From the NCBI RefSeq assembly GCF_008386495.1, contig NZ_VTHJ01000008.1:124001-188000 (forward strand): DNA of 64,000 nucleotides, given 5' to 3'. Of the stretch, positions 25,253 to 41,525 are shown piece after piece (position 1 is the stretch's first letter; the number at the start of each line of letters is the position of its first letter). A program made the translations under genes and the position numbers. The notes below the pieces were generated by a model. It was given only the letters and a program-made list of their open reading frames with translations, searched no databases and was not told where the DNA came from. The stretch comes from Streptomyces tailanensis. Its GTDB lineage: Bacteria; Actinomycetota; Actinomycetes; Streptomycetales; Streptomycetaceae.

Positions 25253-28200
25253 ATGGACGTGTTCGGAACGCACCGGCAGCTCATCCAGGACTACGACGAC
25301 TTCACGACCTCCTTGGTGTGGGTGCGGGATCCGGCGATCAGGAACCATCTCGACGAGGAGCGCAGCGACAAGACCCGCTGGCCCGACCCCTGGATCTCCC
25401 TCAATCCCAACTTCCGAAGTGGCGGAACGGTCGACGCGCTCGTCGACGACAATGTGCTGCACCGGGACTGCAGGGACTACTACTTCCGTGAGAAGCGGGA
25501 CCCGGAGGACGCGGGCAGCCGTACGCTCACCCTCCACCACCATCAGCTCAAGGCGATCGAGGCGGCCAACTCCCGTGAGTCGTACGTCCTGACGACCGGT
25601 ACGGGATCGGGCAAGAGCCTCTCCTACCTCATCCCCATCGTCGACTCGGTACTGCGCGAGCCCAATCCCGACGGTATCTCCGCGATCGTCGTCTATCCGA
25701 TGAACGCGCTCGCCAACAGCCAGAGGAACGAGCTGAACCGCTATCTGCGCTGGGGTGTTCCCCCGGAGCAGCACGGCGCGGTCACCTTCGACCGGTACAC
25801 CGGGCAGGAGCGCAAAGATCAGAAGAAGTCTGTGCTCAGCCGCAAGCCGGACATCCTGCTCACCAATTACATGATGCTGGAGTACCTGCTCACCCGCCCC
25901 GAGGAGCGGCAGCAGCTGATCGCCGCGGCGAAGGGACTGCGCTTCCTCGTCCTGGACGAACTCCACACCTACCGCGGACGCCAGGGCGCCGATGTCGCAT
26001 TGCTGGTTCGAAGACTGCGCGACGCCTGCGAGGCGCCCCGCCTTCAGTGCGTCGGCACCTCGGCGACCATGGCCACCGCGGAGACCTTCGCACAGACGCG
26101 GAAGATGGTGGCCGATGTCGCCAGCCGCCTCTTCGGTACGACGGTGCGGCCGGAGCGGGTGATCGGGGAGAGTCTGCAGCGCGCGACCGTTCCTCCACGG
26201 CGGCCGCTGTCTGACAGCGAACGGCGGACGGCGCTCGCCGAAGCCGTACGACGTGCTGCTGCCGATCCCGCCGACCTGCCCGAAACGTACGGCGCCCTGA
26301 GCGAGGATCCTCTCGCCGTCTGGATCGAGGACACCTTCGGCCTGGACAGGGAGCCGGGCACCGGACGTGTCAAGCGCCGCCGTCCCACCACGATCCCCGC
26401 AGCGGCGGCCGACCTTCACAAGGAGTGCGGCGAGGACGAGACTGTCTGTGCCCGCGCGATCGAGGCCATGCTGGAGGCGGGGGCACAGACCAAGGACCGG
26501 GTGACCGACCGTCCGCTGTTCGCCTTCCGGCTGCACCAGTTCCTCTCCAAGGGCGACACGGTCTACGCCAGTCTCGAACCGTCGGGCGCCCGCCACCTGA
26601 CCAGCCAGTACCAGGTCAGGGTGCCCGGTAACCCGGAGTGGCCGCTGGTGCCGCTCGCGTTCTGCCGCGAGTGCGGCCACGACTTCCCGGTCGTCACGGT
26701 CGAGGGAGGCCACCGGACCGGGCAGTACGTCGCTCGCCAGGATCCCGACGCCCCCGCCGAGCCGGGCGACGGCTACCTGTATGTGGACCAGGAGCGGCCC
26801 TGGCCCGACACTCTGGAAGAGGTTTTGGAGCGGCTCCCGGCCAGCTGGGTCGAGACCGACGACAACGGACAGCGCGTCGTCGTCCAGCGCCGCTCGGGCG
26901 ATCTGCCCCAGGAGGTGTGGATCGGGCCCGACGGCGTGACCACCGAGCCAGGGACGGGCCTGCGTGCCTGGTGGATCGCCGCCCCGTTCCGGTTCTGCCC
27001 GCGCTGTCGCGTCAGTTACGAACAGTTGCGCGTACGGGACTTCGCTAAGCTGGCCACATTCTCGGCCGAAGGCCGCAGCTCCGCCGTGTCCCTGGTGAGC
27101 GCCAGTGTCGTACGTTCCCTGCGCGGCCAGCCCGAACTCAAGCCGCGCGCCCGCAAGTTGCTGACCTTCGTGGACAACCGCCAGGACGCCAGTCTCCAGG
27201 CCGGACACTTCAACGACTTCGCGCAGGTCACTCAGGTCAGGGGTGCGCTGTACCGGGCGCTGCACAAGGCGGGCCCGACGGGCCTGCGGCATGACACGCT
27301 CCCCGAGGCCGTCACGGAGGCACTGGCCCTGCCGCTGACGGCATTCGCGCGGAAGCCCGAAGTGAAGTACCGGCAGCTTGAGGACACCCTGTCCGCGATG
27401 CGGTCGGCGCTGGCGTACCGGCTCTACGCCGATCTGGAGCGGGGCTGGCGGCTGACCATGCCCAACCTCTCCCAGACCGGCCTGCTCCGCTTCGACTACA
27501 CCTCCCTCGCACAGATCGCCGCCGATGAAGAGGAATGGCGGAGAACGCACTGGGCCCTGGAGGGCGATACCCCGGCCCATCGTGAGGAGATCGCCCGCAC
27601 GCTCCTCGACGAACTGCGCCGCGCCCTGGCCGTCGACGAGAAACGTCTCACCAAGCTGGGCCACGACCAGCTCGTGGCCGTCAGCGAGAAGCACCTGGCA
27701 GGCATCTGGGCGATCCCGGAAAACGATCCACGCACCCCCTCCCGTGTAGCGTTCCCGGGCCCGGGGCCCAAGGGCGCCCCATCCGCGGACGCCGTCTACT
27801 TCGGCGCCCGCGGCGGCTACGGGCGCTATCTCCGCAGGGCCGGAGCCTTCGGGGCGCTGCCCCAGCTTGCAGGCAAGGAGATGCCCGTCGCCGACGCGGA
27901 CGCTGTCATCCACCACCTCCTCGACGTGTTGACGAGAACCGGCCTGCTCACCGTCGTGGACGAGGGCCCGGACGGACGTCTCGCCCGCCAGCTGTGCGCC
28001 TCCTCCCTGATCTGGCTGCCGGGCGACGGAGAGAGCGCGGAGCCCGACCCCGTCCGCAAGACCCTGGACCCGGAGGCCACCGCACGCGTCAATCCGTTCT
28101 TCCGCGACCTCTACCGTGAGACAGCCGCGGACCTCGGGGGTCTGGAAGCCCGGGAGCACACCGCTCAGGTCGAGTCCACGACGCGGCAGATACGCGAGGA

Positions 28201-30532
28201 CGCCTTCAGGGACGGCGATCTGCCGCTGCTCTACTGCTCCCCCACTATGGAACTGGGCGTCGACATCGCCGAACTCAACGCCGTCGCGATGCGCAACGTC
28301 CCGCCCACGCCCGCCAATTACGCCCAGCGTTCCGGCCGCGCGGGCCGTTCCGGCCAGCCCGCCCTGGTCACCACGTACTGCTCTACCGGCAGCGCCCACG
28401 ACCAGTACTACTTCCGCCGCTCCGGACTCATGGTCTCCGGCAGTGTCGCCCCACCGCGGATCGACCTCACCAACGAGGACCTGCTCCGTTCGCACGTCCA
28501 GGCCGTCTGGCTGGCCGAGACACAGGTGCCCCTGGGCTCCTCGATGACCGACATCATCGACATCAGGGCCACCGGGAAGTCAGGGGAGCCGCTGCCTCTG
28601 CCCCTGCACACGAAGCTGTCCACCGCCCTGGACAGTGAGACCGCCCGGCAGCGCGCCATCGCCCGCTGCACCGAGCTCCTCGCTCCCCTCGCGGACGATC
28701 TGGCCACCACCTCCTGGTGGTACGACGGCTGGATCACCGACCGGGTCAGGGACACCCGGCGCCGCCTCGACAACGCCTGTGACCGGTGGCGCCGGCTGTA
28801 CCGCCGAGCCTTCGAGGAGCGCGCCGAACAGCACCGCCTCGCCGACGACACGTCCGGCACCTCGCGCGACCGTCGCCGTGCCCAGGCTCGTCGTGCTCAG
28901 GCGGAGAACCAGCTCAAGCTGCTGCGCAACGAGAGCTCCGACAACGACGACTCGTTCTCGGACTTCTACACCTACCGCTACTTCGCCTCTGAGGGCTTCC
29001 TGCCTGGCTATTCGTTCCCGCGGCTGCCTCTGGCCGCGTACGTCCCCGGAGAGCGCGGTGAGAGCCGGTACGGACAGAAGCGGGGGGCCTACATCCAGCG
29101 CCCCCGGTTCATCGCCATCGGCGAGTTCGGACCCGGCGCCCTGATCTATCACGAGGGCCGCCGCTACACGGTGTCGAACGTCCAGGTGCCGATCAGCGAC
29201 ACCCCCGGGCAGATCGCGACGATCGACGCCAAGGTCTGCCGGGCCTGCGGCTACTGGCACGAGCGCAGCGAGGGGCGCGACACCTGTGTGCACTGCGGTG
29301 CCCGGCTCGTCGAGATCCTCAACCGTCTGATGCAACTCACCACGGTGTACGCCGAACCCCGTCGCCGTATCTCCTCCGACGAGGAGGAGCGCCTCAAGGA
29401 AGGGTTCGAGCTGCGCACCGCCTACCGTTTTCACCACGGCAGCCTGACGGCCGACATCAAAAAGCCTGTCCCCGACGGGACGGAGCGGGCGATCGCGGAG
29501 CTGACGTACGGAGACGCCGGCGTTCACGTCATCAACCTGGGCCGCCGCAAACGCAAGATCCGCAGCGATGTCGGATTCTGGCTGGACCCCGTCTCCGGCC
29601 GCTGGCTGAGCGAGGGAAAGGCCGCGGCCGAGCGTCCGGAGACCACGGCGGAGCAGGAGGCACTCGCCGCCTTCGATAGCGCCCGCAGCACGTTCAAGGT
29701 CGTGCCCTACGTCCAGGACAGCAAGAACATCGCCGTACTGAGACTGGCTGCCCCGGTCGACCGGCAGACCGCCGTCACCCTGCGCTACGCCCTGGAGCGC
29801 GGCATCGAGGCGTACTACCAGCTGGAGGACGCCGAACTCAACAGCGAGGACCTCCCTGACCCGGACGGACGGGCCCGCATGCTGTTCGTCGAGGGCGCGG
29901 AGGGCGGCGCGGGTGTCCTGCGGCTGCTGCACGACGACGAGGACGCGCTGGCTGCCGTGGCCGAGCAGGCCCTGGAGATCATCCACGTCAAGCCCGACGG
30001 CACGGACCTCGGCCAGGCCAAGGGCGCTCGGGAGCGCTGTGAGTTCGGCTGCTACGACTGCCTGCTCACCTACCACAACCAGCGCTTCCACCCCGACATC
30101 CGGCGGTTGTCCGCGGTCGACCTGCTTCTCGACCTCGCCGTCGGCCGGGCCGTCCAGCAGCAGCCGCAGGCCGCCAACCCGGTGCTGCACGCCGCCGACC
30201 TGGCCGCCCGGAGCCCGCAGTCGGGCGGTGGAGACTTCGTGCGGTGGCTGCGCGACAACGGCTACCGGCTGCCCGACGCCACCAGCGAGGAGGTGGCCTC
30301 GGCGCGTGCGGTACCGGACTTCGTCTACCGTCTGTCGGATGCGGACGTCGCGGTCTTCCTGGACCTTCCCGGTCACACCGCACCGGACGACACCCGCGAC
30401 ACACGAGCCAGGACCCGGCTGGAGAACCGCAGCTGGCTGGTGATCGAAATCGGCAGTGACAGCGACAAGGAGTGGCACAACACGGTGCGCGCACATCCGA
30501 ATGTCTTCGGCTCGGGAAGGAACACCCGATGA
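25253..30532 (+). CDS. DEAH-type helicase with DUF1998/MZB domain (DrmA-DrmB-like single chain)
   Basis: 1759 residues. Walker A TTGTGSGKS is at about 114-122 and the DEAH-box variant DELH in LVLDELHTYRGRQGADV at about 235; this DELHTYRG is typical of the YprA/MrfA group. Helicase motif VI, QRSGRAGRSG, is near 1025. A four-cysteine zinc knuckle (CRACGYW, CVHCGA) is near 1330, and the MZB/DUF1998 signature CEFGCYDCLLTYHNQ near 1596. The last 100 residues contain PDFVYRLSDADVAVFLDLPG and may be a nuclease-like fold. In DISARM the helicase DrmA and the DUF1998 protein DrmB are separate. The stop overlaps the next start (ATGA). DruE of Druantia is an alternative relative. Confidence 0.85.
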   Translation: MDVFGTHRQLIQDYDDFTTSLVWVRDPAIRNHLDEERSDKTRWPDPWISLNPNFRSGGTVDALVDDNVLHRDCRDYYFREKRDPEDAGSRTLTLHHHQLKAIEAANSRESYVLTTGTGSGKSLSYLIPIVDSVLREPNPDGISAIVVYPMNALANSQRNELNRYLRWGVPPEQHGAVTFDRYTGQERKDQKKSVLSRKPDILLTNYMMLEYLLTRPEERQQLIAAAKGLRFLVLDELHTYRGRQGADVALLVRRLRDACEAPRLQCVGTSATMATAETFAQTRKMVADVASRLFGTTVRPERVIGESLQRATVPPRRPLSDSERRTALAEAVRRAAADPADLPETYGALSEDPLAVWIEDTFGLDREPGTGRVKRRRPTTIPAAAADLHKECGEDETVCARAIEAMLEAGAQTKDRVTDRPLFAFRLHQFLSKGDTVYASLEPSGARHLTSQYQVRVPGNPEWPLVPLAFCRECGHDFPVVTVEGGHRTGQYVARQDPDAPAEPGDGYLYVDQERPWPDTLEEVLERLPASWVETDDNGQRVVVQRRSGDLPQEVWIGPDGVTTEPGTGLRAWWIAAPFRFCPRCRVSYEQLRVRDFAKLATFSAEGRSSAVSLVSASVVRSLRGQPELKPRARKLLTFVDNRQDASLQAGHFNDFAQVTQVRGALYRALHKAGPTGLRHDTLPEAVTEALALPLTAFARKPEVKYRQLEDTLSAMRSALAYRLYADLERGWRLTMPNLSQTGLLRFDYTSLAQIAADEEEWRRTHWALEGDTPAHREEIARTLLDELRRALAVDEKRLTKLGHDQLVAVSEKHLAGIWAIPENDPRTPSRVAFPGPGPKGAPSADAVYFGARGGYGRYLRRAGAFGALPQLAGKEMPVADADAVIHHLLDVLTRTGLLTVVDEGPDGRLARQLCASSLIWLPGDGESAEPDPVRKTLDPEATARVNPFFRDLYRETAADLGGLEAREHTAQVESTTRQIREDAFRDGDLPLLYCSPTMELGVDIAELNAVAMRNVPPTPANYAQRSGRAGRSGQPALVTTYCSTGSAHDQYYFRRSGLMVSGSVAPPRIDLTNEDLLRSHVQAVWLAETQVPLGSSMTDIIDIRATGKSGEPLPLPLHTKLSTALDSETARQRAIARCTELLAPLADDLATTSWWYDGWITDRVRDTRRRLDNACDRWRRLYRRAFEERAEQHRLADDTSGTSRDRRRAQARRAQAENQLKLLRNESSDNDDSFSDFYTYRYFASEGFLPGYSFPRLPLAAYVPGERGESRYGQKRGAYIQRPRFIAIGEFGPGALIYHEGRRYTVSNVQVPISDTPGQIATIDAKVCRACGYWHERSEGRDTCVHCGARLVEILNRLMQLTTVYAEPRRRISSDEEERLKEGFELRTAYRFHHGSLTADIKKPVPDGTERAIAELTYGDAGVHVINLGRRKRKIRSDVGFWLDPVSGRWLSEGKAAAERPETTAEQEALAAFDSARSTFKVVPYVQDSKNIAVLRLAAPVDRQTAVTLRYALERGIEAYYQLEDAELNSEDLPDPDGRARMLFVEGAEGGAGVLRLLHDDEDALAAVAEQALEIIHVKPDGTDLGQAKGARERCEFGCYDCLLTYHNQRFHPDIRRLSAVDLLLDLAVGRAVQQQPQAANPVLHAADLAARSPQSGGGDFVRWLRDNGYRLPDATSEEVASARAVPDFVYRLSDADVAVFLDLPGHTAPDDTRDTRARTRLENRSWLVIEIGSDSDKEWHNTVRAHPNVFGSGRNTR

Positions 30533-33500
30533 GCCCCCGGCACGCCCCCGGTTCCCTGGTGTCGGCCAGGGGCCGCGACTGGGTGGTGCTCCCGGGAACC
30601 ACGGACGACTTCGTGATCGCCCGGCCGCTCGACGGGGACAGCGAGTTCGACACCCTGCTTTTCCCCGGAGAGACAGCGGATCCCGGATTTGCCGCGCCCG
30701 CCCTGCCGCCACTTCCGGACCCCGACGAGGCCGCTTCCGGGGACCTGTTCCCCGGCGGGGAGGACATCGGGGACTTCGCCTCCGCGTCTCTGCTGCGCAC
30801 CGCGCTGCGGATCACCGCCACCTCCAGCGCGGGCCCCTTCCGCTGCCTGTCCGGGATCGCCGTACAGCCCCGCCAGTACCAGCTGGTGCCGCTCATGGTG
30901 GCCCTGCGCATGGACACCGTACGACTGCTGATCGGCGACGACGTCGGCATCGGCAAGACCGTCGAAGCCGCCCTGATCGCCAGGGAACTCCTGGAGCAGG
31001 GCTCGGCCGTCAAACTGTCCGTTCTGTGTTCCCCTGCGCTGGCCGAGCAGTGGCAGCGCGAACTCCACGACAAGTTCGGCCTGGACGCGGAACTCGTCCT
31101 GCCCTCGACCGCTGCCAGGCTGGAACGGGGCATCATCGACCCCGACCAGACGATCTTCGACCGTTACCCGTACACGATCGTCTCCACCGACTTCATCAAG
31201 CAGCGCGAACGCCGGGACGCCTTCCTGCGCACCTGCCCCGACCTGCTCATCGTCGACGAGGCCCACACCTGCATCGGCGCGGGCGCCGGCCGCCAGCAGC
31301 GCTACGAACTCCTCAAGGGACTCGCGGAAGATCCCAGCCGCCACCTGCTGCTGGTCACCGCCACCCCGCACAGCGGCGACAGCGACGCCTTCGCCAAACT
31401 CACCGGACTGCTCGATCCGAAGCTCGCCGCCCTCGACCCGACGATCCCCGCCCATCGTGACCGCCTCGCCCGCCATCTGGTGCAGCGCAGACGCCGCGAC
31501 ATCAGGTCCTTCCTCGGCGAGGACACCCCCTTCCCCGGCGACCGGCTGCTCCGCGAGGTCCCCTACCGTCTGGACGAGTCGTACGCGGAATTCGTGGCCG
31601 ACGTCATCGGCTACGCCCGGGAGCAGGTCCGCCACACCGACGGCGAGCTGCGCAACCGTATGAGCTGGTGGTCGGTGCTCGCCCTGCTGCGCTGTGTGCT
31701 GTCCTCCCCGGACGCCGCCGAGGCCACCCTCACCACCCGGGCGGCGGTCAGCGCGGCCCGCACCCCGCAGGAGGCCGACCGGCTCGGCCGCGAGTCCGTG
31801 CTGGAAACCACCGACGAGGAGGCCGTGGAGGGCCTGGACGCGGTGCCCGGCGCGGTTCTCGCACCGGAGGACGGCCTCGCCACGGCGAAACGGGACGCGG
31901 CGGGCATCTCGGAAACACCGGCCGGGGACAGCGAGACCGAGACGCCCGCCCCCGACGGCCCGGCGGACGAGCCGACCACGTCGGGCAAGGCCGGCCACCG
32001 TCCTCAGGACCCTCGCCTCAAGGTATTCGCGAAGCGGGCCACTGCCCTCGCGGGCCCTGAGCACGACGCCAAGCTGCGCCTCCTGGTCGACGAGGTCACC
32101 GCTCTCATCGACGAGGGGCACGATCCCATCGTGTTCTGCCGGTACATCCCGACCGCCCGCTACGTCCGCAGGTATCTCGCTGAGGCTTTCGAACGCCGTG
32201 TCCACGTCGAGGCGGTCACCGGTGATCTCCCTCCGGAGGCCCGCGAGAAGCGCATCGCCGAGCTCGCCGCCCGCACCGGCCGCCAGGTACTGGTCGCCAC
32301 CGACTGCCTCTCCGAGGGCGTCAACCTCCAGGAGCGGTTCAGCGCCGTCCTCCACTACGACCTGTCCTGGAACCCCACACGCCACGAACAGCGCGAGGGC
32401 CGGGTCGACCGGTTCGGTCAGCGCAGCGAGAACGTGAAGGCCGTCACCCTGTACGAGACGGACACCGGCATCGACGGAATCGTCCTGGAAGTACTGATCC
32501 GCAAACACCAGGACATCGCCCGCCAGACCGGCGTCGCCCTCCCTGTCCCCGACGCAGGCGAAGGCGTCCTGCACGCGCTCACCCGCAGCCTCCTGCTGCG
32601 CGGCCGCCCCGAAGCGGTGGCCCCCGACCAGCTCACCCTGGACTTCGGCACCGACGAGGAACTGGGCCGCGCCCGCGACGAACTGCACCGCGAGTGGGAG
32701 AGCGCCGCCGACCGCGAATCCAAGGTGCCCACCAAGTTCGCCCACTCCGCCCTGCGCCCCCAGGACGTCGAGAACGAACTCCGCGCTTTGCGCCAGGTCC
32801 TCGGCGAGCCCCGCGACATCGCCGTCTTCACCCGGGAGTCCCTGGCCGCCCTGCGCGCCCCCGTCCGCACGGACGCCCGCGGCACCGGATTCACCGTCCA
32901 GGCGAACCCGTTGCCCCCTGGGCTCCGTCACTCTCTCGGGATCTACGACACCGACGACCAGGCCGCCGCTGCCGCGGGCACCGGACGCGCCGCCGCCCGC
33001 ACGGCCGGCCGGGGCCGGGCCCGCACCACGGGCAGCCCCCGTGAGCTCGTCTTCCGTGAGGACCTGCCCGTACCCAAGGGGGAACAGGCTCTGGTCCGCA
33101 CCGACCCGGCGGTCCGCGCCGTCGCCCGGTACGTGCTGGACTCCGCGCTCGACCCGGCCATCCGGGACGAGGACCGCCCTGCCCGCCGCCTCGGGGTCGT
33201 ACGCACCAAGGCCGTCGACATCTACACCGTGCTGCTGCTCGCCCGCTACCGGTTCAAGCTCAGCCTGCCTCTGAAGAACTCCCCGCGCCCCAAGGAACTC
33301 GTCGCCGAGGACGCCCGTGTCCTTGCCTGGCGCCCGGACGACGAGGGGGGCCTCGAATGGCTGGACGAAGCGGAGACGGCTGCCCTGCTGGCGGCCACCC
33401 CTGACGGCAACGTCATGCCCGAGCTGCGGCACCGCACCATAAGGCGCGCCCTCGGTGAGCTCGAACTCCCCGAAGTACGAGACCACTTGCTGCACCACGG

Positions 33501-33672
33501 CCAGGAGCTGGCGGATCAACTGGCCACCGCCCATCTGCGCGTCCGCGAGGCAGCGGGCGAGCGCGGCCGTGCCCTGGGCGCCGCCGCGGCCCGCCGTATC
33601 ACCGTGACACCCGCAGGCCCCGCCGACCGCCTCGGTGTGTATGTCTTCGTACCTGCCGGAGGAGCCCGGTGA
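30529..33672 (+). CDS. drmD: SNF2-family helicase, DrmD-like
   Basis: 1047 residues. The N-terminal 100 residues (GSLVSARGRDWVVLPGTTDD) match the DISARM DrmD opening. The SNF2 core has Walker A GDDVGIGKT at about 136-144, DEAH in LLIVDEAHTC near 242 and motif VI QREGRVDRFGQ near 625. An acidic insertion (about 425-490) separates the two RecA lobes, as in HepA-like proteins. In class 1 DISARM, DrmD is a SNF2-like helicase acting with the DrmAB complex and DrmMI to block incoming phage DNA. It overlaps both neighbours by four bases, so all three genes form one translational unit. Confidence 0.85.
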   Translation: MSPRHAPGSLVSARGRDWVVLPGTTDDFVIARPLDGDSEFDTLLFPGETADPGFAAPALPPLPDPDEAASGDLFPGGEDIGDFASASLLRTALRITATSSAGPFRCLSGIAVQPRQYQLVPLMVALRMDTVRLLIGDDVGIGKTVEAALIARELLEQGSAVKLSVLCSPALAEQWQRELHDKFGLDAELVLPSTAARLERGIIDPDQTIFDRYPYTIVSTDFIKQRERRDAFLRTCPDLLIVDEAHTCIGAGAGRQQRYELLKGLAEDPSRHLLLVTATPHSGDSDAFAKLTGLLDPKLAALDPTIPAHRDRLARHLVQRRRRDIRSFLGEDTPFPGDRLLREVPYRLDESYAEFVADVIGYAREQVRHTDGELRNRMSWWSVLALLRCVLSSPDAAEATLTTRAAVSAARTPQEADRLGRESVLETTDEEAVEGLDAVPGAVLAPEDGLATAKRDAAGISETPAGDSETETPAPDGPADEPTTSGKAGHRPQDPRLKVFAKRATALAGPEHDAKLRLLVDEVTALIDEGHDPIVFCRYIPTARYVRRYLAEAFERRVHVEAVTGDLPPEAREKRIAELAARTGRQVLVATDCLSEGVNLQERFSAVLHYDLSWNPTRHEQREGRVDRFGQRSENVKAVTLYETDTGIDGIVLEVLIRKHQDIARQTGVALPVPDAGEGVLHALTRSLLLRGRPEAVAPDQLTLDFGTDEELGRARDELHREWESAADRESKVPTKFAHSALRPQDVENELRALRQVLGEPRDIAVFTRESLAALRAPVRTDARGTGFTVQANPLPPGLRHSLGIYDTDDQAAAAAGTGRAAARTAGRGRARTTGSPRELVFREDLPVPKGEQALVRTDPAVRAVARYVLDSALDPAIRDEDRPARRLGVVRTKAVDIYTVLLLARYRFKLSLPLKNSPRPKELVAEDARVLAWRPDDEGGLEWLDEAETAALLAATPDGNVMPELRHRTIRRALGELELPEVRDHLLHHGQELADQLATAHLRVREAAGERGRALGAAAARRITVTPAGPADRLGVYVFVPAGGAR

Positions 33673-36600
33673 CCGCCTTCACCCCCGAACCGCCGACGGC
33701 GGTCTCCACCTCCTCCGCCGTACGTGTCGAGGGCCGGCTCCTCACCGCCGACCTGCTGGGCAGACTCGCCGCCGGAGACCGCGAACTGCCCGGCTGCGCC
33801 CCCGCCGACTACGGCCTCTACCGCGGCGAACGCATCGGCGACGCCGCCGGCCGGGCCTGGGCCGCCCTCACCGGCGCCTACCGCGTCTTCCGCGACGACC
33901 TCGCCAAGCTCCCCGAGAGCAGCACCGCTACGACCCTGACCCGCAAGGCCTGGCTGCTCCGCCTGTTCACCGAGCTCGGTTACGGTCGGCTCAGCGGCGC
34001 GGGCGTGACGGTGAAGATCCCTGGCCGGGACGAGAACTGCCGGGCCAGCCACCGCTGGCAGGACCACCTGCCGGTCCACCTGCTGGCCTGGGGCACCCCC
34101 CTGGACGGCAGGGTCGGCAACCGGCGCGCCCCCCAGTCCGTGCTCCAGGAGCTGCTCAACATCTCCGGCAAGCACGTGTGGGGCCTGCTCTCCAACGGCC
34201 AGGTGCTGCGTGTCCTGCGCGACTCCACCGCCCTGGTCGGCTCGGCTTACGTCGAGTTCGACCTCGAAGCGATCTTCGACGGCCAGCAGTACGCCGATTT
34301 CGTACTGCTCTACTCCCTCCTGCATGCCTCCCGCTTCGAACTGGTAGCCAAGCCGGAGAAGAAGCGTCGCCGTCGCGCGCGGAGTCCGCAGGAGTCGGAG
34401 TCCGAGTACGGCGGCGAAGGGGAGCAGCCGGAAGGAGACGACCAGTCCGCCCCGGCGGAACTCGGGGAACTCGGAGGACCCGGGGACGAGGACACAGCCG
34501 CCGACGCCCCCGCCCTCACGGCCGCCGACTGCCGCATCGAATGGCTGCGCACCTACGCCATCGAGACCGGCCTGCGCGCCCGGGACAACCTCCGCGACCA
34601 GGTCGCCGAAGCCATCGGCGTCCTCGGCACGGGCTTCCTCGCGGCCAACCCGGATCTGCACAGTGCGGTTTCGGGCCGCGGTCGAAGGGGCCTTGAGGCC
34701 CTGGAAGAGTTTCATCACGAACTGCTCCGTCTCGCCTACCAGTTGGTGTTCCTCTTCGTCGCCGAGGACCGGGGCATTCTGCTCGACCGCACGGACTCGC
34801 CCGAGGCCCAGGACGCCCGCGACCGGTACGCCCGCTTCTTCTCCACCCGCAGACTGCGCCGTATCGCCTTCCGGCGTCCCGGCGACCGCAACATCGACCT
34901 TTGGCGCGCCCTCGCCATGGTCCTCGACGCCCTCGGCACCGACGGCGGGCAGCCCCAACTCGCCCTCCCCGAACTCGGCGGACTGTACTTCCGCGCGAAG
35001 GAGGACTCGGCCGCCGCCACTCTGCTGGGCCGGGCCGAACCCCTGCGCGCTGCCGAACTCCCCAACGAGCACCTGCTGGAGGCCGTACGGCTGCTTGCCC
35101 GGGTACGCGACGAGGGCGGGCGCTGGCAACGTGTCGACTACCGCCACCTGGGAGCCGACGAACTCGGCAGCGTCTACGAGTCTCTCCTCGAACTCCGCCC
35201 GCGCCGCGACCCCGCCACCGGCCGCTTCCGCCTCCAGACCCTCGCGGGCAACAAGCGCAAGACGACCGGCGCCTACTACACCCCGACCGTCCTCATCGAG
35301 AAACTCCTCGACCAGGCCCTCGACCCGGTCATAGAGCGGCACGCGGCGAACGGCAACCCCCGCGAGCTGCTGGAGATCAACCTGGTGGACCCAGCCTGTG
35401 GCTCGGGTCATGTGCTGGTGGCTGCCGCCCGCCGTATCGCTCTGCGGTATGCGGAGTTGGATACGGGCGAGCCGGAGCCGGCCCCGGAGAGGGTACGGGC
35501 CGCGATGGCCGACGTCGTACGCAACTGCGTCCACGGCGTCGACATCAACCCCATGGCCGTGGAACTCGCCAAGGTGTCCCTCTGGCTGGAGTCCCTGGAA
35601 CCCGGCCAGCCCCTCGCCTACCTGGACGACCGCATCAAGGTCGGCAACGGGCTCCTCGGTACGACCCCGAAGCTGATCGCGGAGGGGGTGCCGGACGGCG
35701 CCTTCAAGAAACTCGCGGGTGACAACTCCAGGATCCTCACCGCGCTGAAGGCGGCCAACAAGAAGGAACGCTCGGGCGGGAAGGGCACCCAGACGGCCAT
35801 GGGTGCCGCTCTGGCGCGAACGGGAACGGCGGAACTCCGGCTGGAAGCCGAGAAGCTTGCGAAACTCCCGGACCGCACGCTTGCGGATGTACGGGATCAT
35901 GCGCGCGCCTACGAGGAGTACCTCGCCAAGTCACCGCACCTGCGTCGCCTCAAGCGCGTCGCGGACGCCTGGTGTGCGGCGTTCCTGTGGCCCAAGAGCG
36001 ACGCAGCCCCGCCGGCTGTCACCAGCTCGGTTCTTGAGCAGCTGGTGGATGGCGGGGAGCTGGCGGAGGCAGTGGCGGTGACAACGAAGGAGGAGGACGA
36101 GGAGCGCAGGCTCTCCGGCGAGCAGCAACTCGACGAGATCGTCAGCCGCAACCGTTTCTTCCACTGGCACCTGGAGTTCCCCCGCGTCTTCCGTGTCGAG
36201 GACGACGAGGACGACGACCACAACCCCGACACGGGCTGGCAGGGCGGCTTCGACTGCGTGCTCGGGAACCCGCCGTGGGAACGGGTCAAGATCCAGGAGA
36301 AGGAGTGGTTCGCGGCGCGGGGCGAGGACGAGGTCGCGGACGCGGCGACCAATGAGCGGAAGAAGCGCATCGCTGGGCTGAAGGAAAGTAAGGAGCGTGC
36401 GGAGCGGGAGCTGTTCGACGGCTTCCAGGTGGCGTTGCGGGAGGCGGCCGGTACGACGCTGATGCTGCGGAACTCGGGCATCTTTCCGTTCACCGGGCAG
36501 GGTGACGTCAACACGTACGCCGTGTTCGCGGAGAAGGCTCGGATGTTGCTGGCTCCGGAGGGGATGTCGGGGCTGGTGGTGCCTACCGGAATCGCTACGG

Positions 36601-38126
36601 ACAAGACGACCTCGGGGTTCTTTGCGGATCTGGTGGATCGGCAGCAGTTGGTGACGGTGCTGGATATGGAGAATGAGGAGAAGCTGTTTCCGGACGTGCA
36701 CCATTCCTACCGCTTCTGCCTGTTCACTGTCTCCGGCCCTGCCTTGAGTTCCGGGCGGACACGCCTCGCCTTCAAGGCGCGGCGACCAGATCAGCTAGAT
36801 AAGCGCGAATTCACGCTCGACACTTCCGGGTTTCGCGCCATCAACCCAAACAGTCGAACGTCACCGGTGTGCGAGAGCCCAGAGCATCTCAGGGTGCTGC
36901 TGGGTATTCATAAGCGGGTGCCGGTGTTGTGGCGTCGGGTAGGGGGCGAGGAAAATCCTTGGGAGCTGCGGTTCAAGACCATGTTCCACATGTCTGGGGA
37001 CTCGGATCTCTTCCTCACGGCGGAAGACCTCGACGCGGACGGTTGGACCCTGCAAGGGACAGTGTTCGTTCGCGACGATGAACGTGCTCTGCCGCTGTAC
37101 GAGGCCAAGATGGTGCACCAGTACAACGCGCGCTTCTCGACATACGAGAGTGCGACCGAAGCACAACTCAAGCAGGGGACCCTGCCCCGCTTGGAACTTG
37201 AATGTCGCGCTGACCCGGAAAAGTTGCCGCTTCCACGCTACTGGGTGCGAGAGCAACACGTCGATAAAAGCTTGGCGGCGGAACCGGCCAGGCCGGAGAC
37301 GGAGTGGCCGCACGACTGGCTGATGGGCTGGCGTGATGTATGCCGATCCGTGGACGAACGGACGGTGATCGCTTCTGTACTGCCGCGCACGGCTGTAGGC
37401 CACACCGCGCCGCTACTGCTGCCGCTCCGCCAGGATCTCCCTCTGGACGGACTCCTGGCCAACCTCTCCACATTCGTACTGGACTTCGCGGCACGACAGA
37501 AGATCTCCGGCGCGCACCTCACCTACACCTACCTTGAACAGCTCCCGATCCTGCCCCCCGACACTTACGCCCGCCCCGTCCCCTGGCTCGGCGACAGCAC
37601 CCTCGCCCCCTGGATCCGCGACCGAGTCCTCGAACTCACCTACACCTCCTACGAGATGGCCCCCTTCGCCCGCCACCTCGGCGACGAGAACCCGCCGTTC
37701 GTCTGGAACGAGGACCGCCGCTTCGAGATCCGGGCCGAGCTGGACGCCGCGTACTTCCACCTCTACGGGATCCCGGAAGCCGACATTGAACTCGTCCTGG
37801 ACAGTTTCCGCGCGTTCCGGAACAAGTCGCCGGAACTCTTCGAGCGGACCAAGGACAGGATCCTCACCATCTACAGGGAGATGGAGAAGGCGGCCGAGTA
37901 CGCCGGCTCGTACACCAACCTCGCCATGACGCCGCCCCCGGGCAGGGGCCCCCGCCATGCGCCGGGCCGCAGCCCGCTCACCCGGCCGGAACGGACCACC
38001 CCCGAGCCCCCGCAGCCTCCCGAGCCGATGGGAGCGAGACCGCCGAGCGACGAACCGGACGCCGGGGGTGGCCTGTTCAGCGTCACCGAGCTGGGGGTCG
38101 ACGAACAACTCGGCTTCTGGTCCTGA
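33669..38126 (+). CDS. large N6-adenine DNA methyltransferase (Eco57I/PglX-like; DrmMI candidate)
   Basis: 1485 residues. SAM motif I is LVDPACGSGHVLVAAARRI near residue 572 and catalytic motif IV NPPW in CVLGNPPWERVKI near 866, the N6-adenine signature. The first 500 residues are a large N-terminal region with an acidic, low-complexity stretch around 235-275, and residues beyond about 1050 probably form the target-recognition region. No restriction nuclease motif was seen. In DISARM the methylase marks host DNA as self. BREX PglX and type IIG enzymes share this architecture, but no pglZ or brxC is nearby. Bases about 36,400-37,300, in the putative recognition region, look less GC-rich than their surroundings. 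Confidence 0.85.
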   Translation: MTAFTPEPPTAVSTSSAVRVEGRLLTADLLGRLAAGDRELPGCAPADYGLYRGERIGDAAGRAWAALTGAYRVFRDDLAKLPESSTATTLTRKAWLLRLFTELGYGRLSGAGVTVKIPGRDENCRASHRWQDHLPVHLLAWGTPLDGRVGNRRAPQSVLQELLNISGKHVWGLLSNGQVLRVLRDSTALVGSAYVEFDLEAIFDGQQYADFVLLYSLLHASRFELVAKPEKKRRRRARSPQESESEYGGEGEQPEGDDQSAPAELGELGGPGDEDTAADAPALTAADCRIEWLRTYAIETGLRARDNLRDQVAEAIGVLGTGFLAANPDLHSAVSGRGRRGLEALEEFHHELLRLAYQLVFLFVAEDRGILLDRTDSPEAQDARDRYARFFSTRRLRRIAFRRPGDRNIDLWRALAMVLDALGTDGGQPQLALPELGGLYFRAKEDSAAATLLGRAEPLRAAELPNEHLLEAVRLLARVRDEGGRWQRVDYRHLGADELGSVYESLLELRPRRDPATGRFRLQTLAGNKRKTTGAYYTPTVLIEKLLDQALDPVIERHAANGNPRELLEINLVDPACGSGHVLVAAARRIALRYAELDTGEPEPAPERVRAAMADVVRNCVHGVDINPMAVELAKVSLWLESLEPGQPLAYLDDRIKVGNGLLGTTPKLIAEGVPDGAFKKLAGDNSRILTALKAANKKERSGGKGTQTAMGAALARTGTAELRLEAEKLAKLPDRTLADVRDHARAYEEYLAKSPHLRRLKRVADAWCAAFLWPKSDAAPPAVTSSVLEQLVDGGELAEAVAVTTKEEDEERRLSGEQQLDEIVSRNRFFHWHLEFPRVFRVEDDEDDDHNPDTGWQGGFDCVLGNPPWERVKIQEKEWFAARGEDEVADAATNERKKRIAGLKESKERAERELFDGFQVALREAAGTTLMLRNSGIFPFTGQGDVNTYAVFAEKARMLLAPEGMSGLVVPTGIATDKTTSGFFADLVDRQQLVTVLDMENEEKLFPDVHHSYRFCLFTVSGPALSSGRTRLAFKARRPDQLDKREFTLDTSGFRAINPNSRTSPVCESPEHLRVLLGIHKRVPVLWRRVGGEENPWELRFKTMFHMSGDSDLFLTAEDLDADGWTLQGTVFVRDDERALPLYEAKMVHQYNARFSTYESATEAQLKQGTLPRLELECRADPEKLPLPRYWVREQHVDKSLAAEPARPETEWPHDWLMGWRDVCRSVDERTVIASVLPRTAVGHTAPLLLPLRQDLPLDGLLANLSTFVLDFAARQKISGAHLTYTYLEQLPILPPDTYARPVPWLGDSTLAPWIRDRVLELTYTSYEMAPFARHLGDENPPFVWNEDRRFEIRAELDAAYFHLYGIPEADIELVLDSFRAFRNKSPELFERTKDRILTIYREMEKAAEYAGSYTNLAMTPPPGRGPRHAPGRSPLTRPERTTPEPPQPPEPMGARPPSDEPDAGGGLFSVTELGVDEQLGFWS

Positions 38127-38186: not shown

Positions 38187-38408
38187 TCAGAGCTCCCCGG
38201 AGATCACACCCTCGCGGAACGCGGCCCACTCGGACGCGGTGTACCGCAAGGGCTCGGCCTTGGGCCGCTTCGAGTCACGTACAGCTTTGCCGCCGCCGGG
38301 GAGGTTCGTCACCTCGACGCAGTCGTGCTCCGCTCCGCTGGCGGAGGACTTTCGCCATATCGCGGTAGAGAGGTCGTAGGCATACAGCTCAGCCTTCGCG
38401 TCGTTCAC
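38187..38408 (-). CDS. DUF397 domain protein
   Basis: 73 residues with the DUF397 pattern WRKSSASGAEHDCVEVTNLP, then KAVRDSKRP and a final SEWAAFREGV. DUF397 proteins are small partners of the adjacent XRE/DUF5753 regulators in streptomycetes and are thought to counteract them. The GTG start overlaps the XRE stop (GTGA), so the two are coupled. Confidence 0.9.
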   Translation of the reverse strand: MNDAKAELYAYDLSTAIWRKSSASGAEHDCVEVTNLPGGGKAVRDSKRPKAEPLRYTASEWAAFREGVISGEL

Positions 38409-39271
38409 TTCCTGTGGCCTTCTTCCATGTGGGCGATCCGTGCGAGCGAGTCCTCCACCGAGAGGGCCGTGGCGCGGATGCGTTCGAAGGCTTTGGCGAA
38501 GGGTGCCGCGTCGTCGCCCTCAACGTAAGCTGCGCCGCTGAGGTTTTCCAAGAGCACGACAACAGGTATGGGCTGGGGGAAGTCGGCGAGGCTGAAACCA
38601 CCCAACATGCCGGGGTGCGTTGTGCAGTCCAGTGGCATCAGCTGAACAGTGACATTCGGCATGTCGGCTGTGTCCAACAGGCGTCGCAACTGGTCCCGCA
38701 TGGTGGCCGGGCGGACGGCGAAGCGCTGAAGAAGCGCGGCTTCGTGAATGATCGCCCAGAGTTCGAGGGGCGAGCCGGGGCGGGTGAGTACTGACTGGCG
38801 GGCGAGCCGGACTTCCGCCAACGCAGCAACTTCCTCTGGCGTTCGGAACGTCGTCACGCCAGCGATGGTCTCGCGTGCATACGCGGCGGTCTGGAGGAGC
38901 CCCGGGATGACCAGCGGGGACCATGTGCAGATCGTCTCCGCGTCGGACTCCAGGGAGATGTAGTCCGCATAGGACGGCGAGACGATCCCGCTGTACGTCT
39001 GCCACCAGCCCTTTTTGCCCGCATCCCTTGCCAGGTTCTCCAGCGCGGTGCATACATCCGGATCGCTGATGCCGTACGCCTCCAGCAGCGCTGTCACGTC
39101 GCCGGGGCGGATGGCCTGGTTGGCGCTCTCGATCTTCGACAGCTTCGGGCCCTTCCACCCCATGGTGGCCGCGGCATCGTCGAGCGTCATCCCGACGCCG
39201 TTGCGGAGGCGCCGCAGCGTTGCCCCGAGACGCCTGCGGCGGACGGTCGGAACCAGCGGAGAGTTGGGCAT
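38405..39271 (-). CDS. XRE-family helix-turn-helix regulator with DUF5753 domain
   Basis: 288 residues. Residues about 10-70 are an HTH_XRE domain (LRRLRNGVGMTLDDAAATMG, WKGPKLSKIESANQ); the rest is the DUF5753 ligand/partner-binding region (TWSPLVIPGLLQTAAYARET). Paralogues such as BldB/AbaA-cluster regulators are abundant in Streptomyces and modulate development and antibiotic production. It diverges from the ATP-binding gene and is followed by DUF397, the usual three-gene layout. It may or may not regulate the flanking defence genes. Confidence 0.92.
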   Translation of the reverse strand: MPNSPLVPTVRRRRLGATLRRLRNGVGMTLDDAAATMGWKGPKLSKIESANQAIRPGDVTALLEAYGISDPDVCTALENLARDAGKKGWWQTYSGIVSPSYADYISLESDAETICTWSPLVIPGLLQTAAYARETIAGVTTFRTPEEVAALAEVRLARQSVLTRPGSPLELWAIIHEAALLQRFAVRPATMRDQLRRLLDTADMPNVTVQLMPLDCTTHPGMLGGFSLADFPQPIPVVVLLENLSGAAYVEGDDAAPFAKAFERIRATALSVEDSLARIAHMEEGHRK

Positions 39272-39462
39272 GTCGGCAGTCTCGCACGGCCAATTCGGGT
39301 GCTGAGCCAGCTCACAGAGGGTGATTCACCTGATTGGGTAGAAAACTTGCTACCTCGGGGAGAAGTGGTCACTATCGGGAGGGTGCTGCGAAGCCGAACA
39401 CGTAAGTGCGCAGCGCGACTTGGCCCAACGCGTACCCGCGCACATCCCAGGCCGGAGGTCCC

Positions 39463-39990
39463 ATGCCCGACCCCACCCAAACCCACCTTCCCGCCCCCGC
39501 CCACTACCGCGACCCGGACCAAGACGCCGACCCCCGACTCCTCCACCCCCTCCCCCCACCCGCCTTGGGCCTCTATCTCCGCCACCGCAACCAGGGCTTC
39601 GCCGCACACCTCAGTGCGTCCGCCGGCGCCTTCCGTCTCCTGCGTGGGCTGACCGTCAAGGTGCTGGCGGACTACGGCGCCGACCCGGAGGCGGCCGAGG
39701 CGGCGCAGCTGGTCGTGTCGGAGCTGGTCGGCAACTCGGTGCGGGCATGCGGGGATCACGTACCGCTGGTGGTGGAGGTTTACGTGGCCGCGTTCGGGGT
39801 CGCGGTCAACGTCCACGACCCAGACCCGTGCGTGCTTCCTAGATCGCGCGGGATCGCGCTGCACGACCCCGAGGCCGAGTCGGGGCGCGGGCTGGGGCTG
39901 CTGGATCTGCTCGCACCGGGTTGGCGGGTGTGTCGGTCGCCGATCGGGAAGCAGATCCGGTGCCGGGTTCTGATGGGTTGCCCTGGGTGA
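39463..39990 (+). CDS. ATP-binding protein, anti-sigma-factor-kinase-like (HATPase_c_2)
   Basis: 175 residues. After a Pro-rich N-terminus of about 45 residues, the GHKL fold is visible: N-box SELVGNSVRACG, then VHDPDPCVLPR in place of the G1 box and ESGRGLGLLDLLAPGWRV as the G2 region. Such proteins are common beside XRE/DUF397 pairs and resemble SpoIIAB/RsbW kinases, although a partner sigma factor is not evident. GGAGG lies directly upstream of the ATG. Confidence 0.88.
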   Translation: MPDPTQTHLPAPAHYRDPDQDADPRLLHPLPPPALGLYLRHRNQGFAAHLSASAGAFRLLRGLTVKVLADYGADPEAAEAAQLVVSELVGNSVRACGDHVPLVVEVYVAAFGVAVNVHDPDPCVLPRSRGIALHDPEAESGRGLGLLDLLAPGWRVCRSPIGKQIRCRVLMGCPG

Positions 39991-40131: not shown

Positions 40132-40386
40132 ATGGTCGGGCGTGAGCTGTCTGCGGCGGATCATCCGAAGAAGGAGGTCCGCGCGGTCCTCGACCGACTG
40201 GTGGCCCAGGGGTGGAAGCTGTGCAAGGAGGGGCACTGGGGGCGGCTGTACTGCCCGTGCGAGGGGCGGTGTCTGACGATCCCCGTGCCCGGCACTCCGC
40301 AGAACGCCGATCGTGCGGCCCGGAAGATCGCGGCGAGGGCGGTGCTCTGTCCGCTGCCCGAGGGGGACCCGCGCCGTGCCCCGTAA
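40132..40386 (+). CDS. HicA-like small toxin candidate
   Basis: 84 residues: KKEVRAVLDRLVAQGWKLCK, then EGHWGRLYCPCEGRCLTIPV and GTPQNADRAARKIAARAV. The order short helix, Gly-Trp turn, His-containing strand, strand ending in a proline turn, and long C-terminal helix follows the double-stranded-RNA-binding-like fold of HicA mRNA interferases. His in EGHWG sits where HicA has its catalytic GSHH. Two CxC pairs are extra to classical HicA. A GGGGAGG lies upstream of ATG 40132. The HicB-like gene follows after 109 bases. Toxicity is inferred. Confidence 0.6.
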   Translation: MVGRELSAADHPKKEVRAVLDRLVAQGWKLCKEGHWGRLYCPCEGRCLTIPVPGTPQNADRAARKIAARAVLCPLPEGDPRRAP

Positions 40387-40392
40387 GGGTCT

Positions 40393-40429
40393 GTTGTCGT
40401 TTGACAACGGGCCGTCGCTGGGTAACGCT
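40393..40429 (+). promoter_or_regulatory. candidate promoter with overlapping palindrome before the HicB-like gene
   Basis: An inverted repeat GTTGTC-GTTT-GACAAC (40393-40408) overlaps a canonical -35 TTGACA (40401-40406). A TAACGCT sequence starts at 40423, giving a spacing of 16 bases to a possible -10. The start codon of the HicB-like gene is at 40496. Autorepression by the HTH-containing product would fit. Confidence 0.45.
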
Positions 40430-40495
40430 GCCAAGAGGAGGTGGCGAACTCTGGGCCAGAGGTTCGTACGGCACGATCAAGGGGGAGTGAGGGCC

Positions 40496-41383
40496 ATGGA
40501 GTACGAGTTCCTGTTCGTGGTGGAGGGAATCGATGTCGACGACCACAAAGCCGTGGGAGTCGTCTTCGACCAGTTCGACGGGCTGTTGACCCGGCACCGC
40601 GACCGCCACCTGCTGGATGTCGCCGAGACCGGTGCGAACGCCATCGAGGCAGCTCATCGTCTCGTCGCGCGTCTTCGCCGGGCCCTGCCGGACCTGCGGA
40701 TCCTCAGGCTGGACCCCGAGCTGGTGGGTGTGAGCGACATTGCCGAGCGGACAGGGCGCAGCCGGCAGAACGTACTGCAATGGTCGGGTGGCGAGCGGCG
40801 TACGGACCGGCCGTTCCCCGAGCCGGAGGGAGCGGTCGGCCGTTCCCTGGTCTGGCGCTGGGCCGAGGTCAACCAATGGCTTCGCCTGATCGGAGCGGGC
40901 GACGAATCGGTCGCGCCGCTCCGAGAGGAGGCGCTGTTGATCGACCTGATGCTGCCGCAGTGGCAGCAGGACCTGGCGGACGGGCTGCCGCTCGTGAGGC
41001 TGCTGTGTACCCAGGACGAGTGGCAGGACGAGCGTACGGCTGTGATGCAGATGCTTCAGGACGCGTTGCGCCAACCCTTGGTCATGAGGACGGTCGCGGC
41101 TCTGCCACGCAGTGAGCCGGACCGGTTGTCCGTGGTGTGCGCGGTGGTCCAGGACCGGCTGAGCGCGGTGCTCGAACAGATCGCGCCCGACGACGCGTCC
41201 GCACTCCTTGCCGTCCGGGGCGACGAGACAGGCCTGCACCTGCTGGGCGTGGCCTCGCGGGCCATGCCGGGCACCGTGCCCGTCTCGGAGCTGGGCCTGA
41301 GCGGCAACGCCACCGTAGGTGATCTGCTGCTGGAGCTGTCGAGCCGGTCCGTCGAGCCGACCACCCCCCTGGCCCTGGCTTGA
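40496..41383 (+). CDS. HicB-like/HTH DNA-binding protein with long C-terminal extension
   Basis: 295 residues. The first 65 (MEYEFLFVVEGIDVDDHKAV, then DVAETGANAIEAAHRLVARL) resemble the partial RNase-H fold of HicB antitoxins. A helix-turn-helix follows: VGVSDIAERTGRSRQNVLQW, ending in WRWAEVNQWLRLIG. The remaining 170 residues are not recognised; they are helical and acidic with ALLAVRGDETGLHLLGVASR. HicB antitoxins normally bind both HicA and their own operator, which agrees with the upstream palindrome. ATG 40496 follows a purine-rich GGGGGAGTGAGGG. Confidence 0.6.
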   Translation: MEYEFLFVVEGIDVDDHKAVGVVFDQFDGLLTRHRDRHLLDVAETGANAIEAAHRLVARLRRALPDLRILRLDPELVGVSDIAERTGRSRQNVLQWSGGERRTDRPFPEPEGAVGRSLVWRWAEVNQWLRLIGAGDESVAPLREEALLIDLMLPQWQQDLADGLPLVRLLCTQDEWQDERTAVMQMLQDALRQPLVMRTVAALPRSEPDRLSVVCAVVQDRLSAVLEQIAPDDASALLAVRGDETGLHLLGVASRAMPGTVPVSELGLSGNATVGDLLLELSSRSVEPTTPLALA

Positions 41384-41525
41384 GCCCGCTCTCGTACGTG
41401 ATCCGAACCGTTCCCGGCCTGCGGCAACAGCGCCAAATGGGGGGAGTGTCAGTGGCGGTCGATATCTTGTACGGCACTGGAAGCTGATCCCCACGGGTCG
41501 GTGCGAGGGCGACGAGGGGGAGTCC

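What the first reader, a model, noticed from the sequence alone, without database searches (positions are those of the whole stretch)
25253..38126. DISARM-like operon with DrmA and DrmB apparently in one chain and no DrmC
Three genes overlap by four bases each: a DELH-box helicase that also carries the DUF1998/MZB zinc signature, a SNF2 helicase with DrmD-like N-terminus, and a 1485-aa NPPW methyltransferase. Class 1 DISARM normally has separate drmA, drmB and a phospholipase-D-type drmC. Here the helicase and DUF1998 parts share 1759 residues and no PLD gene is found between 25 and 46 kb. The layout may be a compact DISARM variant or a separate helicase-helicase-methylase system.
Basis: partly seen in the sequence, partly recalled or inferred. 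Interest (0 to 1): 0.75.

Follow-up and report, generated by a model that had tools for sequence, protein, structure and literature searches.

The report
ARMADA type I phage-defence operon
A three-gene anti-phage operon that looks like a trimmed DISARM system fits the recently described ARMADA type I family; its built-in DNA-cutting domain looks worn out, and a second DNA-cutting system, McrBC, lies just downstream.

Summary
In detail: three + strand genes (25253-30532, 30529-33672, 33669-38126) overlap by 4 bp and encode a DEAD/DELH helicase with a DUF1998/MZB domain in one chain, a SNF2/RapA-like helicase and an NPPW adenine methylase; no PLD motif was found. It is not DISARM: the helicase scores 336 bits for DruE models against 56 for DrmA. 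It fits ARMADA type I as defined in a September 2025 preprint (PMC12458937): same gene order, one-chain YprA helicase, BrxHII/RapA-like helicase, PglX-like methylase. The triad recurs in several phyla. The same genome holds a second type I operon and a type II-like one. The helicase's C-terminal Vsr-fold nuclease lacks a conserved glutamate and glycine. McrBC lies about 3.2 kb downstream. Of 71 type I loci, 41 have McrC 9-36 kb downstream on the same strand and 0 have it upstream or on the other strand within 60 kb. Degenerate Vsr copies mostly sit with McrBC (34 of 36, against 14 of 38 intact), but tree-aware pairs are too few for significance. Verdict: new member of a known kind, with an untested hint that cleavage was handed to McrBC.

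The parts
25253..30532 (+). YprA-family DEAD/DELH helicase with DUF1998/MZB domain in one chain (ArmC-like), 1759 aa
30206..30517 (+). C-terminal Vsr-like fold (helicase residues about 1680-1783 counted from ATG 25169); conserved E and G of the active-site motifs missing
30529..33672 (+). SNF2/RapA/BrxHII-like helicase (ArmA-like), ATG overlapping the helicase stop
33669..38126 (+). PglX/DrmMI-like NPPW adenine methylase (ArmB-like), 1485 aa
38187..38408 (-). DUF397 gene between the triad and McrBC
38405..39271 (-). HTH_31-DUF5753 regulator-like gene
39406..39990 (+). histidine-kinase-like ATPase gene
40313..41383 (+). ORF with a partial match to PADLOC PDC-M06B (46 bits); overlaps the long McrB ORF
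41319..43799 (+). McrB-like AAA protein, Walker A and MNTSD present; the real start is probably the ATG at 41526
43796..45073 (+). McrC, PD...DAK nuclease motif present

Best explanation
The three genes are an ARMADA type I anti-phage operon: a YprA-family helicase, a RapA/BrxHII-like SNF2 motor and a PglX-like adenine methylase. Inferred mechanism: the methylase marks host DNA; the two motors engage unmarked or structurally abnormal phage DNA (ends, nicks, single-stranded stretches) and block or expose it; a nuclease finishes it. In most relatives sampled that would be the Vsr-type domain at the helicase's C-terminus. In this copy the active site looks decayed, so cleavage is either not needed or done by a partner, most plausibly the McrBC pair about 3.2 kb downstream. 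Shown here: gene identity, order, conservation, Vsr-like fold, loss of motif residues, McrBC linkage. Inferred: anti-phage activity of this copy, marking of self, use of McrBC. The confidence given is for the whole compound statement; the family identity alone I would put near 0.9.
For: Helicase best PADLOC models DruE, 335.9 bits, the same pattern as the tested type II ArmC of E. coli ATCC 8739, 347.8 bits. SNF2 protein: closest solved structure RapA. Methylase NPPW and CGSG. Order as stated for type I. Core identity 64-80% to 17 helicases of loci with the same gene order, 35-38% to type II ArmC, a type II-like ArmC and DruE, 22-25% to DrmA. Vsr fold: I-Bth0305I Z 9.6, Vsr Z 7.5. Motif loss. 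McrBC downstream with intact motifs, and in 41 of 71 type I loci on the same strand downstream.
Against: The type I rows form one side of a branch with only 79/75 support, and the published type I reference was not in the tree. The BrxA-like insert named in the preprint was not recognised. Two opposite-strand genes separate triad and McrBC here, so they are not one transcript as drawn. 14 loci have McrBC and an intact Vsr motif. No activity of any type I system was seen tested in the text I read; the assays are on type II.
Confidence: 0.55

Rival explanations
1. Same operon identity, but ARMADA and McrBC are independent neighbours in a defence island; Vsr decay and McrBC linkage coincide only because both are old traits of a few actinobacterial clades.
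For: Vsr state changes only 6 times on the tree; independent pairs give p 0.0625 at best and 0.25 as the median of the direct pairing. 14 loci have McrBC with an intact Vsr motif. Opposite-strand genes lie between the two systems here. Vsr decay without McrBC near occurs in L108 and L151 and, outside Actinobacteria, in L197 and L199.
Against: McrC lies downstream on the same strand in 41 of 71 loci and upstream or on the other strand in 0 of 71 within 60 kb. No independent pair goes the other way. The two are directly adjacent in Nocardioides, Cellulomonas and Chlorohelix.
Confidence: 0.35
2. A true class 1 DISARM whose DrmA and DrmB have fused and whose DrmC is lost or lies elsewhere.
For: SNF2 protein and methylase do resemble DrmD (251.6 bits) and DrmMI (196.3 bits); NCBIfam DISARM_DrmD 278.2 bits, under its cut-off of 610.
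Against: DrmA only 56.5 bits and DruE 335.9; no DrmB family in the 18 NCBIfam hits; core identity to two DrmA proteins 22-25%; no PLD motif in the window. Real DISARM drmA/drmB pairs lie beside such triads as separate genes in NC_008697.
Confidence: 0.02
3. A Druantia variant.
For: Best PADLOC models are DruE.
Against: DruE models match in pieces; type II ArmC gives the same pattern. Core identity to E. coli DruE 35%. No Druantia partner among the ten flanking ORFs.
Confidence: 0.03
4. A housekeeping MrfA-type repair helicase with chance neighbours.
For: MZB domain.
Against: Conserved three-gene order in 59 of 60 loci; patchy presence, 14 of 100 related genomes; the genome has another MZB ORF of 828 aa that is the better housekeeping candidate.
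Confidence: 0.01

Closest known systems
ARMADA type I (Bell et al. 2025, preprint PMC12458937)
   Same: gene order YprA, BrxHII/RapA-like helicase, PglX-like methylase; one-chain helicase with DUF1998; C-terminal Vsr-like domain; no DrmB/DrmC
   Different: the preprint calls the type I Vsr domain predicted active; in this copy the motif is incomplete
ARMADA type II (E. coli ATCC 8739, NC_010468, locus L060)
   Same: the same three protein kinds
   Different: order SNF2-methylase-helicase-ArmD; helicase core 37% identical; no ArmD-like ORF in the window
DISARM class 1
   Same: DrmD-like and DrmMI-like proteins
   Different: separate DrmA and DrmB, PLD protein DrmC; none of these here
Druantia (DruE)
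   Same: best HMM match of the helicase
   Different: different partner genes; core 35% identical to E. coli DruE
Canonical McrBC linked to a DISARM-like cassette (Bell et al. 2024, PMC11090510, passages)
   Same: McrB with an N-x-x-D motif (MNTSD) beside such a cassette
   Different: that paper reports the association and defers the details; strand polarity, spacing and Vsr state are measured here

Membership tests
ARMADA type I | gene order YprA, BrxHII-like helicase, PglX-like methylase | tested here: met
ARMADA type I | helicase and OB-CON-DUF1998 parts in one chain | tested here: met
   DEAD, Helicase_C and MZB in one 1759-aa ORF
ARMADA type I | YprA homologue inside the type I clade | tested here: inconclusive
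   grouped with helicases of the same gene order, branch support 79/75; published type I reference not available to the tree
ARMADA type I | inserted region with at least two CxxC pairs between RecA1 and RecA2 | tested here: met
   C499-C502 and C610-C613, invariant in 49 aligned sequences
ARMADA type I | BrxA-like helical insert after RecA1 | tested here: inconclusive
   model pLDDT 87, no solved fold matched at E <= 0.001; not searched with pdb_via
ARMADA type I | C-terminal Vsr-type fold | tested here: met
   I-Bth0305I Z 9.6, Vsr Z 7.5 by VIA-align 2; Foldseek alone had nothing at E <= 0.001
ARMADA type I | Vsr domain predicted active (preprint's statement for the type) | tested here: not met
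   conserved E and DG missing; also in 36 other of 101 typed copies, so not a sharp criterion
ARMADA type I | anti-phage activity | not testable with these tools
   needs plaque assays
ARMADA type II | SNF2 gene first and ArmD (RelE-GajB-like) last | tested here: not met
   order differs; no ArmD-like ORF in the window at E <= 1e-5
DISARM class 1 | separate drmA and drmB | tested here: not met
   one chain; DrmA 56.5 bits
DISARM class 1 | PLD protein DrmC | tested here: not met
   no HKD motif in window ORFs, no DrmC hit in ten flanking ORFs
Druantia | DruE with a Druantia partner (such as DruH) | tested here: not met
   no such hit in the ten flanking ORFs
Dpd | DpdA transglycosylase | tested here: not met
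   0 matches in the genome at E <= 0.001, despite an 824.6-bit DpdE model match of the SNF2 protein

The most novel reading that the evidence does not exclude
In part of ARMADA type I the helicase has given up its own nuclease and passes the DNA it captures to a separate nuclease encoded downstream: usually McrBC, and in two non-actinobacterial cases perhaps an HNH enzyme. The working unit would then be triad plus McrBC (in many of the related Streptomyces-like genomes also an ArmD-like protein), with exchangeable defence cargo inserted between the two ends.
Probability: 0.22. Interest if true: 0.65.

Novelty: new member of a known kind. Interest (0 to 1): 0.4.

Why it matters
It corrects a likely misannotation: by HMM the parts look like Druantia, Dpd/DISARM and DISARM at once. 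It points to named hosts of type I (for example Streptomyces scopuliridis RB72, L071), whose activity assays I did not see in the text I read. If the nuclease role has moved to McrBC, two systems counted as separate would work as one. There is a partial precedent: against phage T3, DruE appears to supply DNA intermediates on which Zorya acts (PMC13192584, passages).

Tried and rejected
Considered and rejected: fused DISARM, Druantia, Dpd and housekeeping MrfA (see rivals and membership rows).

Led nowhere: Foldseek alone gave no match at E <= 0.001 for either model. A first family tree used a wrong ORF for the housekeeping YprA and was redone. The tree-aware test of Vsr decay against McrBC is not significant: 5 starred pairs, about 3 agreeing, 0 opposing, 2 without difference, median p 0.25 (range 0.125-1); the reverse pairing, 11 pairs, about 4 agreeing, 0 opposing, median p 0.125 (range 0.0625-0.125). 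That tree is a quick one with warnings of long branches that meet, among them L098 and L145, two of the degenerate rows. The plain Fisher p of 1e-7 ignores kinship and should not be quoted alone. Wider genome sampling failed twice, and a smaller one added only three new hits.

Rows dropped before the 74-row table: L114 and L115 (C-terminus missing or in an unrelated frame), L153, L154 and L156 (duplicates), and 27 of the 101 typed rows because too little downstream DNA or no genome search was available. McrBC states in that table were set by hand; in L075, L086, L103 and L104 only McrB was seen, at a contig end. Some 'absent' states rest on a whole genome without any McrC hit. L191, L192, L194-L200 came later and are not in the table. 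In the count of 71, loci on short contigs count as without McrC. McrBC was sought in the later loci with an HMM built from actinobacterial McrB and McrC plus one Deinococcus pair, which missed the annotated Chlorohelix pair, so it may miss other divergent ones.

Full report
The observation. Pfam finds DEAD, Helicase_C and MZB in the first protein, helicase and SNF2-related domains in the second, and Eco57I/N6_Mtase in the third. The start at 25253 is supported because most of the nine aligned relatives begin with or align at the same MDVF. A strict PLD motif pattern matches no window ORF of 100 aa or more.

What it is. PADLOC gives DruE3 335.9 bits against DrmA 56.5 for the helicase, a DpdE model 824.6 and DrmD 251.6 for the SNF2 protein, and DrmMI 196.3 for the methylase. 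All NCBIfam hits lie below their curated cut-offs. This mixed signature is what a September 2025 preprint (PMC12458937; I saw the abstract, parts 1 and 2 of 3 of Results, Conclusions, the bioinformatics methods, figure legends and find passages) describes as ARMADA: a YprA helicase closest to Druantia with two further proteins shared with DISARM. As a control, the ArmC helicase of ARMADA II in E. coli ATCC 8739 gives the same DruE-first pattern (347.8 bits; locus). A Dpd label would be wrong: no DpdA was found in the genome.

Conservation. 14 of 100 related genomes, the window's own included, hold the helicase at E <= 1e-40. In all 16 of their loci fetched with flanks and in three plasmid records (Nocardioides, Deinococcus radiodurans, Roseomonas) SNF2 and methylase homologues follow; the methylase is truncated or broken in L032 and L057. 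Among 80 named loci (the best 80 of 587; titles name Actinomycetes, Chloroflexi, Meiothermus, Clostridiales, Acidobacteria, Planctomycetota and others), the SNF2 gene follows in 67 of 70 and the methylase in 59 of 60 that hold enough DNA; the misses are L076, L114 and L148. Helicase-core identity is 64-80% to 17 such helicases, 35-38% to two type II ArmC-type helicases and DruE, 31% to the genome's other YprA-like ORF and 22-25% to two DrmA proteins.

The host genome, probably a Streptomyces (inferred from the nearest named loci), holds a second type I operon on C102 at 51% identity. It also holds an SNF2-methylase-YprA cluster followed by a GajB-like gene on C131, which fits type II; its helicase pairs with the E. 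coli ArmC at 99/97 support.

The nuclease domain. Helicase residues 1680-1783 were modelled (mean pLDDT 86.5) as a Vsr-like fold: I-Bth0305I Z 9.6 (rmsd 2.5, 91 aligned) and Vsr Z 7.5 (rmsd 2.7, 92 aligned) lead the list. Foldseek alone had no match at E <= 0.001, and Z near 7.5 is by itself a middling value. 64 of 101 typed copies keep the DG[PST]xH motif and 37 lack it. The window copy reads GGGDF, PDF and LDLPGH where relatives have LE..F, PDF and (V/I)DGPxH: the glutamate and the glycine are gone, while PD, D and H remain. Loss of motif residues suggests, but does not prove, loss of activity.

McrBC. An McrB/McrC pair lies at 41319-45073 with Walker A, MNTSD and PD...DAK motifs. Over 71 type I loci, a PF10117 McrC gene lies 9-36 kb beyond the helicase on the same strand in 41, and within 60 kb upstream or on the other strand in none; 46 of the 73 McrC hits in the 149 genomes searched are such neighbours. 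In Nocardioides the five genes follow without gaps, and in Chlorohelix an EVE-AAA gene and a DUF2357/PDDEXK_7 gene follow the triad. 30 of 71 loci show none, and two Rhodococcus plasmids have none annotated within 20 kb. That McrBC is often next to a DISARM-like cassette was already reported (PMC11090510, passages; mentioned again in PMC12458937).

A possible link. Among 74 loci with both states set, Vsr is degenerate in 34 of 48 with McrBC and in 2 of 26 without. The trait changes about six times on the tree; independent pairs never go against the link but are too few for significance. Of later loci outside the table, L194 (degenerate, McrBC by HMM) and L200 (degenerate, McrC-like gene by annotation) fit. 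L197 and L199 are degenerate and no McrBC was seen; each has an HNH endonuclease gene downstream on the same strand, adjacent to the methylase in L199 and several genes away in the Hydrogenimonas plasmid. L191, L192, L195 and L196 are intact, with no McrBC in the DNA held. L198 has a helicase ending before the Vsr region and no SNF2 or methylase match. In L108 and L151 the domain is degenerate, no McrBC is near, and no nuclease family was recognised among the ten neighbouring proteins scanned. I rank outsourcing as possible, not established. I found no text on it in four searches of the open-access library; the preprint's supplement and part 3 of its Results were not read.

Island anatomy. In 22 same-genus genomes with both flanking genes on one contig, the TldD/PmbA-type and SDR genes are 167-302 bp apart in 19 and 7.0-8.5 kb apart in three; here they are 21.6 kb apart. 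The close relatives L071/L155 and L070/L156 carry triad and McrBC at the same site. So the operon sits in an insertion hotspot. In the related genomes an ArmD-like gene (41% identical over its length to the C131 protein and 35% to the E. coli ArmD) directly follows McrC in 7 of 12 McrBC-linked type I loci; the window has none.

Mechanism and verdict. The most likely mechanism is host marking by the methylase and engagement of foreign DNA by two motors, with cleavage by the Vsr domain in most relatives and possibly by McrBC here. For type II in E. coli, protection is reported without abortive infection, and deleting any of its four genes abolishes it (preprint); DruE prefers 3'-tailed DNA and assembles on single strands (PMC13192584, passages). 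These are analogies, not tests of this operon. It is a new member of a known kind.

Noticed in passing
L057 (D. radiodurans R1 plasmid MP1, 14007-32633): A type I triad whose methylase gene is in pieces around an IS630-like element, with McrB and McrC starting about 1.8 kb after the last piece.
   Followed up: no
window 38187-39990 and related loci: A DUF397 / HTH-DUF5753 / HATPase set lies between triad and McrBC; the DUF5753 family member recurs in 10 of 18 compared loci, while the genome has 54 DUF5753 matches, fragments included, in 10 Mb. A regulatory or defence role is possible.
   Followed up: partly
window 25041-46668: The TldD/PmbA-type and SDR genes that flank the island are near neighbours in 19 of 22 same-genus genomes; three others carry different 7.0-8.5 kb inserts there, one with a type I restriction-enzyme-like gene.
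   Followed up: partly
L061, L062, L063, L064, L065, L066, L067: ArmD-like UvrD helicase genes, described in the preprint for type II, directly follow McrC in seven type I islands.
   Followed up: partly
G013, G049, G057 (stitched loci): Separate drmA/drmB-like pairs lie between the triad and McrBC, so DISARM itself can be cargo of the ARMADA-McrBC island.
   Followed up: no
L039 (G000:C131:70000-89999): Type II-like ARMADA cluster in the same genome: 986-aa SNF2, 1644-aa methylase, 2202-aa YprA, 719-aa ArmD-like ORFs.
   Followed up: partly
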